Shown here in pieces: positions 39,536 through 44,275 of a stretch of 64,000 nucleotides of DNA. The stretch lies in NCBI GenBank assembly GCA_947165145.1, contig CAMUZG010000002.1, positions 1 to 64,000 of the forward strand. Reading direction: 5' to 3'. The notes beneath the pieces are model-generated. The model was not told the origin of the DNA, did not search any database, and was given only the letters and a program-made list of their open reading frames with translations. Both the position numbers and the translations under genes were made by a program. The number at the start of each line of letters is the position of its first letter. Position 1 is the stretch's first letter. Origin of the DNA: an uncultured Selenomonadales bacterium (GTDB lineage Bacteria; Bacillota; Negativicutes; Selenomonadales; Selenomonadaceae).

Positions 39536-39632
39536 GTCAATAACCCCGCGCATCATAATTCGCCCTGCTCGCTTTATGGCGAAAAAATTTTAAGGAGGTA
39601 AGCGGCTCACTGTTTTACGCCGCGCAGTTGTG

Positions 39633-39667
39633 ATGAAAATCGGTAAAGTAAAAAAATAATTAAGCGA
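39633..39667 (+). other. Out-of-frame N-terminal signal-peptide segment with A-AAA-AAA slippery run
   Basis: From ATG 39633 the frame reads MKIGKVKK and stops at TAA (39657-39659), directly after seven A. A shift of -1 at this run continues as IIKR and joins the amidinotransferase frame at 39668. The result is a textbook signal peptide with a basic start and hydrophobic core. It may be programmed frameshifting, transcript slippage, phase variation or a sequencing error. No good ribosome binding site precedes the ATG. Confidence 0.5.
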
Positions 39668-40678
39668 ATGCTTGTCGCCTCTTTGACCGCAGGACTTTTA
39701 GTCGGAACATTTGGCGTAAGTTCGGCGGCGGCAGAAAAGGTTTATGTCGAAAGTGAATTCGCTCCGCTCAAGCGTGTTGTACTGACGCAGACAGAGGTTG
39801 TCCTCGGCAAAAACACCGAAAAATATGTCGATGAGAATGCGAAGGTTCCGGAAATTACGGACAAGTACATGGCGGAATGGGCGAACGAACGGGAAAATCT
39901 GAAACGCATATTGGAAAAATACGGCGTCGAAGTGCAAAGACCGCGTTTGCTCACGGAATACGAAAAAATGCTTGGTAATGTTGAAGGCGGTTACACAGAA
40001 GCCTCCGGTATCAGCAACTTTTTTGCCAGAGATCCGTTCATAACGATTGGCAACCACATCATCGAATGCTCATTTTTTTCACTCTACCGCAGATTGGAAG
40101 TTCTTCCGATTCGACCCATTTTGCAGAAAGAAGCGGAAGAAAGCGGTTGCTATTACGTGTCGATACCGCAAGCTGATATTTCCAACGGCAATGATTCGAC
40201 AGTCGGCCCTTTCCTTGAAGGCGGCGATGTGCTGGTTTACGGGAAAACCGTTTTTGTCGGCAATTCGGGAAGAGCAACCAACCATGCGGGCATTGTCTGG
40301 CTCAGAAACTATTTAGGTCATTTCGGTTATAACGTTGTCGAAGTCAAAATGGATAAAGATATTTTGCACCTCGATTGCATACTAAGTTTTCCACGCGACG
40401 GCTTGATGATTGTATGTGAAGATGCCATGCCCGAAGGTCTTCCGGAAGAGTTAAAATCGTGGGATAAAATTCTCGTCACCAAAGACGAAGCGCAGGCATT
40501 GGCAACGAACGGTCTGCCCATTGACGACCACACGTATATAACGGATATTGCCTTTAAGGACACGGTTGGCAAGGAACTTGAGCGGCGCGGTATCCATGTC
40601 GAATACATTGATTATAAGTTGTCGAGATTTGCGGGCGGAGCCTTTCGTTGCAGCACACAGCCGTTGCTTAGAGAATAA
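39668..40678 (+). CDS. Secreted amidinotransferase/arginine- or agmatine-deiminase-like protein
   Basis: The 336-aa product from ATG 39668 starts with the hydrophobic part of a signal peptide (LVASLTAGLLVGTFGVSSAAA) lacking a basic region; that part is in another frame upstream. The mature part has the guanidino-modifying fold: FLEGGDVLVYG (acidic), HLDCILSF (His) and GGAFRCSTQPLLRE with the nucleophilic Cys near the end. Family members hydrolyse or transfer the amidino group of arginine-like compounds; the substrate is unknown. Codon use (many ATA, GGA, CAT codons) differs from neighbours. A transfer into the propionate block is inferred. Confidence 0.78.
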   Translation: MLVASLTAGLLVGTFGVSSAAAEKVYVESEFAPLKRVVLTQTEVVLGKNTEKYVDENAKVPEITDKYMAEWANERENLKRILEKYGVEVQRPRLLTEYEKMLGNVEGGYTEASGISNFFARDPFITIGNHIIECSFFSLYRRLEVLPIRPILQKEAEESGCYYVSIPQADISNGNDSTVGPFLEGGDVLVYGKTVFVGNSGRATNHAGIVWLRNYLGHFGYNVVEVKMDKDILHLDCILSFPRDGLMIVCEDAMPEGLPEELKSWDKILVTKDEAQALATNGLPIDDHTYITDIAFKDTVGKELERRGIHVEYIDYKLSRFAGGAFRCSTQPLLRE

Positions 40679-40687
40679 TCAATCCTT

Positions 40688-40765
40688 ATGAACGACAAAC
40701 TCAAGCTCTATATCTTGCAAAAATTTACAGACGCTCAAATTGTCCTGCGGCACTCAACGCGATAA
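40688..40765 (+). CDS. Tiny ORF or gene remnant after the amidinotransferase
   Basis: A 25-codon ORF (MNDKLKLYILQKFTDAQIVL start) has no clear ribosome binding site or match. The following 80 bp before mmdA contain no gene. It may be leftover from the event that brought in the amidinotransferase. Confidence 0.2.
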   Translation: MNDKLKLYILQKFTDAQIVLRHSTR

Positions 40766-40850
40766 AACGTTACGGCGACGCTTACATCAAAAATCGCGTG
40801 TATACAAACTTTGGAAGACTCGGCACGGCAAATAAAAAGGAGAAGATTTA

Positions 40851-43041: not shown

Positions 43042-43449
43042 ATGACATACGTACAAAATCCGAGCGTGTTCGATGTCGGCAAGCCGTTGCCCGAACAATT
43101 CAGCAAATATTTTATTGGGCAGGCGTATTTGAATCCATTGACCAAAGTCGGCGGCGCGATTGCCAACGTGACGTTCTCGCCTGGTTGTCGCAATAATTGG
43201 CACATTCACCATAAGGGCGGACAAATTCTTCTCGTGACGGGCGGACGAGGTTGGTATCAAGAATGGGGCAAAGCTCCGCAGTCGTTGAAGCCTGGCGATG
43301 TCGTCAACATTGCGCCCGAAGTCAAGCATTGGCACGGCGCGGCGGCTGATAGTTGGTTTTCTCATTTGGCGGTTGAAATTCCCGCTGAAGATGCCTCGAA
43401 CGAATGGCTTGAGCCCGTCGACGACGAACAGTATGCCAAGCTCAAATAA
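43042..43449 (+). CDS. Cupin-domain protein
   Basis: The 135-aa single cupin has the metal-binding motifs WHIHHKGGQILLVTGGRGWYQ and PGDVVNIAPEVKHWHGA. Close relatives act beside carboxymuconolactone decarboxylase-like proteins or as quercetinase-type enzymes; substrate unknown. ATG 43042 follows AAGGAG. Its last 17 bases overlap the start of the Dam methylase gene, which would tie the expression of a metabolic gene to a restriction system. Confidence 0.82.
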   Translation: MTYVQNPSVFDVGKPLPEQFSKYFIGQAYLNPLTKVGGAIANVTFSPGCRNNWHIHHKGGQILLVTGGRGWYQEWGKAPQSLKPGDVVNIAPEVKHWHGAAADSWFSHLAVEIPAEDASNEWLEPVDDEQYAKLK

Positions 43450-44275
43450 TCCTGATGTCGCGCCCGTGTTGAAATGGGTCGGTGGTAAGCGTCAACTTTT
43501 TGAAACTTTCAAGCCGTTGTTCCCGAAAAAAATCAGTCCCTACTGCGAACCGTTTCTCGGCGGCGGCGCAATTTTTTTCAAGCTCCAACCCCGCACAGCG
43601 TTCATCAACGACATAAACGAAGATTTGATGTTGGTTTACAGAGTTATTCGCGAAGACGTGGAGAAACTCATCGCGGCTCTTTCGACGTACAAAAACGACG
43701 CCGAGACTTTTTACGCCGTCAGAGATTTGGATCGCGACAAAGAAAAATTTTCTGCACTGCCCGAATGGGAACGTGCCGCCAGGATTATTTACCTCAACAA
43801 AACGTGCTTCAACGGACTTTATCGCGTCAACAACGCTGGAGAATTCAACACGCCGTTTGGCAAATATCTCAACCCGAACATCGTGAACGAGCAAACGTTG
43901 CGAGCCGTCAGCAAATATCTGCAATCGCCGAGAATTACCATTACTGTCTGCGACTACGCGGAAGTTTTGAGCCGCATTCCGAAAAGAACGTTCGTCTATC
44001 TCGACCCGCCGTATGATCCCGTTTCGACGACAGCCAATTTCACGGGCTACGTCAAGGGCGGCTTTAATCGCGACGAGCAAATCAGATTGCGGGATTGTTG
44101 CAACGACTTGACCGAGCGCAAGATTAAATTCATGCTCTCGAATTCCGACACCGAATTTATCCGCGAACTTTACGCCGCTTACGAAATTATTTCGGTGCAG
44201 GCGCGACGCATGGTCAATTCCGTTGCAAGCAGGCGCGGCGATGTCAACGAGCTGGTGATTAGAAATTATGACTAA
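43433..44275 (+). CDS. DNA adenine methyltransferase (Dam/DpnM type)
   Basis: The 280-aa N6-adenine methylase has motif X (VLKWVGGKRQLF), motif I (EPFLGGGAIFF) and motif IV (YLDPPYDP), in the class D12/Dam order. Many members methylate GATC. ATG 43433 overlaps the cupin gene; its ribosome binding site is weak, so coupling is probable. The restriction gene begins inside its last codons (8-nt overlap). Together they form a type II restriction-modification system. Confidence 0.9.
   Translation: MPSSNNPDVAPVLKWVGGKRQLFETFKPLFPKKISPYCEPFLGGGAIFFKLQPRTAFINDINEDLMLVYRVIREDVEKLIAALSTYKNDAETFYAVRDLDRDKEKFSALPEWERAARIIYLNKTCFNGLYRVNNAGEFNTPFGKYLNPNIVNEQTLRAVSKYLQSPRITITVCDYAEVLSRIPKRTFVYLDPPYDPVSTTANFTGYVKGGFNRDEQIRLRDCCNDLTERKIKFMLSNSDTEFIRELYAAYEIISVQARRMVNSVASRRGDVNELVIRNYD

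What the first reader, a model, noticed from the sequence alone, without database searches (positions are those of the whole stretch)
39633..39700. Signal peptide split at an A-AAA-AAA slippery run
MKIGKVKK stops at TAA right after seven A. A -1 slip on the run joins it to IIKRMLVASLTAG..., producing a perfect signal peptide for the amidinotransferase. The main frame from ATG 39668 lacks the basic start. This is either programmed slippage or phase variation controlling secretion, or a one-base sequencing error.
Basis: partly seen in the sequence, partly recalled or inferred. Interest (0 to 1): 0.65.

Follow-up and report, generated by a model that had tools for sequence, protein, structure and literature searches.

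The report
Frameshifted start in secreted-enzyme gene
The first few amino acids of an exported enzyme's gene are cut off from the rest by a run of seven A's that looks one base short, an ordinary kind of slip near a gene's start that may switch secretion off, and nothing suggests a new mechanism.

Summary
In detail: ATG 39633 opens MKIGKVKK, ends at TAA 39657 right after A7 (39650-39656), and the main ORF (39668-40678) lies in the -1 frame with KKIIKR in frame just upstream of its ATG. The enzyme belongs to the arginine deiminase/amidinotransferase superfamily. It sits between mce and mmdA, which are at most 406 bases apart in the 28 relatives where the gap could be measured, so it looks laterally acquired. 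Three Selenomonas homologues (about 90% aa) have one continuous signal peptide starting SD-ATG-A8. I read the window as a one-base contraction of a 5' poly(A) tract, like the known A7/A6 tract of Listeria inlA (also an 8-residue remnant). A real allele is somewhat likelier than an assembly error: 0 of 85 A/T runs of 7 or more in conserved coding DNA showed a frameshift (63 of 85 detectable). Programmed -1 frameshifting is poorly supported: no stimulator, weak site. The bare geometry is near chance (5 of 412 genes, 1.75 expected). No reads were available, so switching is untested.

The parts
39592..39599 (+). Shine-Dalgarno AAGGAGGT, 33 nt upstream of ATG 39633
   Evidence: read directly; homologues carry AAGGAGG about 7 nt before their ATG
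39602..39623 (+). possible 5-bp hairpin GCGGC/GCCGC between the Shine-Dalgarno and the mini-ORF start; folding it out would leave about 11 nt of spacing
   Evidence: predicted in MFE and centroid, but the region is no more stable than shuffles (z 0.82 and 0.33)
39633..39659 (+). mini-ORF MKIGKVKK-stop (GTG 39630 is in frame just before it)
39650..39656 (+). A7 homopolymer, 0-frame A_AAA_AAA followed by TAA
39647..39667 (+). main-frame codons SKKIIKR upstream of ATG 39668, no standard start codon; ATT 39659 overlaps the mini-ORF stop
39668..40678 (+). main ORF, 336 aa: hydrophobic core and AXA-type cleavage region, then a mature guanidino-modifying enzyme (D122, H234, C328 motifs)
39728..40678 (+). 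mature region homologous to Selenomonas genes (83% nt); homology begins at the signal-peptide cleavage region

Best explanation
The gene's proper start is the ATG (or GTG) of the mini-ORF. A replication slip shortened the 5' poly(A) tract in the n-region codons by one base, so in the assembled genome the start is out of frame with a laterally acquired, exported guanidino-modifying enzyme. In this state most translation ends after 8 residues. Some enzyme may still be made from ATG 39668, which lies 8 nt past the stop and gives a signal peptide without basic residues, or by rare slippage. Because the run is a homopolymer the change is in principle reversible, so this would be an OFF or leaky allele of the inlA kind. 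Shown: the geometry, the homologues' continuous signal peptides, the clean runs elsewhere in this genome. Inferred: that the allele is real in the population, the reinitiation, the reversibility.
For: Three of three close homologues (L004, L005, L026) encode one continuous basic signal peptide beginning SD-ATG-A8. The main frame carries KKIIKR directly upstream of its ATG without a start codon. ATG 39668 has no Shine-Dalgarno and no basic residue; in the 514 kb sampled, 17 of 22 signal-like N-termini have at least one K/R in the n-region, and the 5 without look to me like membrane proteins. Mature region under purifying selection against L004 (dN/dS 0.08). 0 of 85 A/T runs of 7 or more in 123 kb of conserved coding DNA showed a frameshift, with 63 of 85 simulated one-base losses detected, so a general indel problem in the assembly is unlikely. 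Precedent: Listeria inlA, A7 in frame, A6 giving a stop after residue 8 (PMC2831843, sections 9 and 13).
Against: No reads or second strain were seen, so an error at this one run is not excluded (upper 95% bound about 4.8% per run by the rule of three on 63 detectable runs). The Shine-Dalgarno is also misplaced relative to ATG 39633 (33 nt), so the mini-ORF may not be the true start or the 5' region may have more than one defect. The signal-peptide region is not alignable with the homologues, so the ancestral run length is inferred, not observed. The geometry alone is near chance.
Confidence: 0.47

Rival explanations
1. Consensus or sequencing error: the organism's run keeps the frame and the gene is an ordinary exported enzyme.
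For: The genome is a draft assembly (43 contigs, 82.78% complete). Homopolymers are the usual site of such errors (general knowledge). Homologues have continuous frames.
Against: 0 of 85 comparable runs in conserved coding DNA are broken (sensitivity 63 of 85). Errors should strike conserved and accessory genes alike.
Confidence: 0.22
2. No frameshift at all: translation of the 336-aa ORF starts at ATG 39668 (perhaps by reinitiation after the mini-ORF) or at the rare start ATT 39659, which would give MKRMLVASL..., a normal short signal peptide.
For: Stop TAA 39657 lies 8 nt before ATG 39668 and overlaps ATT 39659; the hydrophobic core and cleavage region are complete from either start. The mini-ORF geometry occurs near chance level.
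Against: No Shine-Dalgarno before either start. Start at ATG 39668 lacks basic residues, unlike the homologues; ATT starts are rare (recalled).
Confidence: 0.19
3. Programmed -1 ribosomal frameshifting or transcriptional slippage on A_AAA_AAA makes the joined protein at a set ratio.
For: Correct phasing of the heptamer with a 0-frame stop directly after it.
Against: No stimulatory structure (z -0.82, 0.22, 1.04), no nearby upstream Shine-Dalgarno; A_AAA_AAA much less shift-prone than A_AAA_AAG in E. coli (PMC5009743 passage); selection against slippage-prone runs is evident at nine bases in many genomes and a run of eight is called non-slippery (PMC1088944 passages); arrangement not found in the five homologues read.
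Confidence: 0.07

Closest known systems
Listeria monocytogenes inlA 5' poly(A) tract (Orsi et al. 2010, PMC2831843; abstract and sections 9 and 13 read)
   Same: 5' A-tract in the first codons of an exported protein; one-base contraction gives a stop after residue 8
   Different: inlA has population data and measured reversion; here one assembly only, and the tract is A7 off against an inferred longer on state, where inlA is A6 off, A7 on
Transcriptional-slippage 'pseudo pseudogenes' with A9 runs (Baranov et al. 2005, PMC1088944; passages read)
   Same: ORF disrupted at an A-run that slippage could rejoin
   Different: run here is A7, shorter than the nine bases reported as slippage-prone
Bifidobacterium breve pilus replication-slippage switch (PMC9187656; search listing and start of abstract only)
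   Same: from the listing: ON/OFF replication slippage in a gut commensal surface structure
   Different: details not read; no switching shown here
Guanidino-modifying enzyme superfamily (SxtG 6u1r, HsvA 5wpi, inosamine-phosphate amidinotransferase 1bwd, AGAT; arginine deiminase, DDAH)
   Same: superfamily match over the mature enzyme, catalytic motifs kept
   Different: weak identity, exported, substrate unknown; fails the curated cut-offs of the NCBIfam equivalogs

Membership tests
5' homopolymer phase-variable gene (inlA type) | A/T homopolymer near the 5' end whose one-base change breaks the frame | tested here: met
   the joined frame gives a complete signal peptide
5' homopolymer phase-variable gene (inlA type) | tract-length variation within a population, reversible | not testable with these tools
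   one genome per species, no reads
5' homopolymer phase-variable gene (inlA type) | in-frame state in relatives | tested here: met
   3 of 3 close homologues in frame with A8 after ATG; not the same alignable tract
-1 programmed ribosomal frameshift | X_XXY_YYZ heptamer in 0 frame | tested here: met
-1 programmed ribosomal frameshift | downstream structure or upstream Shine-Dalgarno stimulator | tested here: not met
   z-scores; sequence upstream of the heptamer
-1 programmed ribosomal frameshift | conservation of site in homologues | tested here: not met
   the five homologues read (L003/L028, L004, L005, L026, L027) have continuous frames
Guanidino-modifying enzyme superfamily (ADI / DDAH / amidinotransferase) | profile match above Pfam gathering score | tested here: met
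   PF02274 42.1 bits (cut-off 22.8), PF19420 36.9 (cut-off 23)
Guanidino-modifying enzyme superfamily (ADI / DDAH / amidinotransferase) | catalytic Asp/His/Cys motifs | tested here: met
   RDPF D122, LHLD H234, FRCST C328; roles recalled for AGAT-like enzymes
dimethylargininase or arginine deiminase equivalog (NCBIfam) | curated cut-off score | tested here: not met
   45.4 against 340 and 26.4 against 489.1 bits

The most novel reading that the evidence does not exclude
In an uncultured Selenomonadaceae lineage, slip-strand variation of a signal-peptide poly(A) tract switches one laterally acquired guanidino enzyme between an exported form (full signal peptide) and a form started at the internal ATG whose export is impaired, so run length decides the compartment of the enzyme and not just whether it is made.
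Probability: 0.08. Interest if true: 0.55.

Novelty: new member of a known kind. Interest (0 to 1): 0.24.

Why it matters
If the allele is real it adds a commensal anaerobe's exported enzyme to the list of genes whose 5' poly(A) tracts can be switched off by one-base slips. If it is an error, it is an example of how draft assemblies hide signal peptides. Either way the annotated protein would lack its basic n-region and may be mis-scored for secretion.

Tried and rejected
Programmed frameshift with stimulator: folded three downstream stretches, none beyond chance. 5' region fold as a regulatory structure: 151 nt, z 0.82. Origin of the unalignable signal-peptide DNA elsewhere in the genus: DNA search of 66 genomes at E up to 10 gave only short matches apart from the window itself, many at the Shine-Dalgarno stretch; in the own genome only two weak protein matches besides itself. 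Viral contigs: no relative. Plasmids: 36 records, all under 60% identity; nothing close. A sharp recombination border at 39728 was considered; at dS about 0.87 fast signal-peptide divergence explains it equally well, so I do not claim a recombination. The frameshift scan printed four candidates: two I put down to the relative's frame (a fused ORF in G034; an ORF of L034 that ends early while the window's mmdA is intact), one is an antisense ORF, and one (C21) is an internal deletion of about 200 residues in a chemoreceptor; none lies at a homopolymer loss in the window's genome. Paper searches for Selenomonas with phase variation (10 papers) or amidinotransferase (3 papers) gave listings with nothing relevant.

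Full report
Observation. The window reads ATG AAA ATC GGT AAA GTA AAA AAA TAA from 39633, with seven A at 39650-39656; the 336-aa ORF starts at ATG 39668 in the -1 frame. In that frame the sequence is open only back to 39647 and reads SKKIIKR before the ATG, without ATG, GTG or TTG. The window lies on contig 2 of a 43-contig draft of 1.94 Mb, 82.78% complete. A strong Shine-Dalgarno (39592-39599) lies 33 nt before ATG 39633; a 5-bp hairpin (39602-39623) could shorten the effective spacing to about 11 nt, but the region is not more stable than shuffles.

Chance. In 514,028 bases of this genome (27% of it, window included), 5 of 412 ORFs of 100 aa or more show the same strict mini-ORF/A-run/stop geometry, the focal gene being one; 20 Markov resamplings of upstream DNA gave a mean of 1.75 (range 0-6) (ORFs with fewer than 170 bases of upstream sequence were left out). 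A looser scan gave 65 start-run pairs over 374 ORFs of 150 aa or more. The geometry alone is therefore weak evidence; the signal-peptide sense of the joined frame carries the case.

The gene. Pfam: ADI (42.1 bits, E 7.5e-11) and DDAH_eukar (36.9 bits, E 3.2e-9). NCBIfam equivalogs are far under cut-off. Nearest solved structures by sequence: SxtG (E 9.9e-9), HsvA, inosamine-phosphate amidinotransferase, AGAT. The D122, H234 and C328 motifs are present (catalytic roles recalled). Hence an exported guanidino-modifying enzyme of unknown substrate; no claim is made that it takes part in any toxin pathway.

Relatives. In the genus 3 of 66 genomes have it, the window's own included; the other two are only 57-59% identical. 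In the class sample 22 of 380 match at E 1e-3 or better, own included, three of them at about 90% identity; in the family sample 6 of 189 match at E 1e-30 or better, own included. One search matched mce in 49 of 66 genomes; 30 became loci, own included. The window has 1,315 bases there, so the gene looks laterally gained. The three close homologues start AAGGAGGCAAACAG-ATG-A8-G and run continuously through the signal peptide. DNA homology with them begins at 39728, the cleavage region, at 83%; dN 0.072, dS 0.87, ratio 0.08 against L004 over 316 codons.

Error or allele. I compared 1,005 ORFs from stretches of genus relatives with the 514 kb; 122,777 bases were covered by matches, with 85 A/T runs of 7 or more. 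Four frame-change candidates were printed; none was a homopolymer indel in the window's genome (see Tried and rejected). Deleting one base at each of the 85 runs was detected in 63; intact runs gave 0 of 85. This puts the per-run frameshift rate under about 4.8% (95%, rule of three). Errors should strike conserved genes as often as accessory ones, real inactivation should not, so the result tilts towards a real allele without proving it.

Signal peptide. A crude scan found 22 signal-like N-termini among 228 genes with a Shine-Dalgarno of 5 or more bases; the K/R count in the n-region was 0 in 5, 1 in 4, 2 or more in 13. By eye the five with none look like membrane proteins. The start at 39668 has none; the joined reading has six.

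Mechanism. I take the window as an OFF or leaky state made by one-base contraction of the tract. Literature seen: Orsi et al. 2010 (abstract, sections 9 and 13; [quoted passage not shown] Baranov et al. 2005 (passages) put the length at which selection against slippage is evident at nine in a large proportion of genomes. Atkins et al. [quoted passage not shown] coli. With no stimulator found, set-ratio recoding is unlikely.

Verdict. Observation confirmed; interpretation partly supported; a new member of a known kind, of modest interest, with an error still possible.

Noticed in passing
window 40690-40845: Relic of a small Ada metal-binding-domain gene between the enzyme and mmdA: 64% over 28 aa to the intact copy in L049; intact-looking copies lie in the same gap in L038, L048 and L049 and begin there in L031.
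   Followed up: partly
L035, L041, L044, L045, L046, L059 (mce-mmdA gaps): The gap in several genus relatives is filled with short imperfect direct repeats that are self-complementary, e.g. TAGGAATTAGGA-like units.
   Followed up: no
L004 3785-3825; L005 3690-3720: A palindrome (ACTACTCCCGC...GCGGGAGTAGT) that looks like an insertion-sequence end lies upstream of the Selenomonas homologue; upstream DNA differs between L004, L005 and L026 up to a shared GGTATACTACACTTTAAGGAGG.
   Followed up: no
G000 contig 21, about 5327: A chemoreceptor gene lacks about 200 internal residues relative to a genus relative and changes frame at the joint.
   Followed up: partly
L043 (G034 contig 17): Nitroreductase and methylmalonyl-CoA epimerase lie in one open frame (361 aa) in this relative, separate in the window.
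   Followed up: no
window 43042-44275: A cupin-like ORF (43042-43449) overlaps the start of a 325-aa ORF (43298-44275) with a DPPY motif that looks like a DNA adenine methylase (family recalled, not searched).
   Followed up: no
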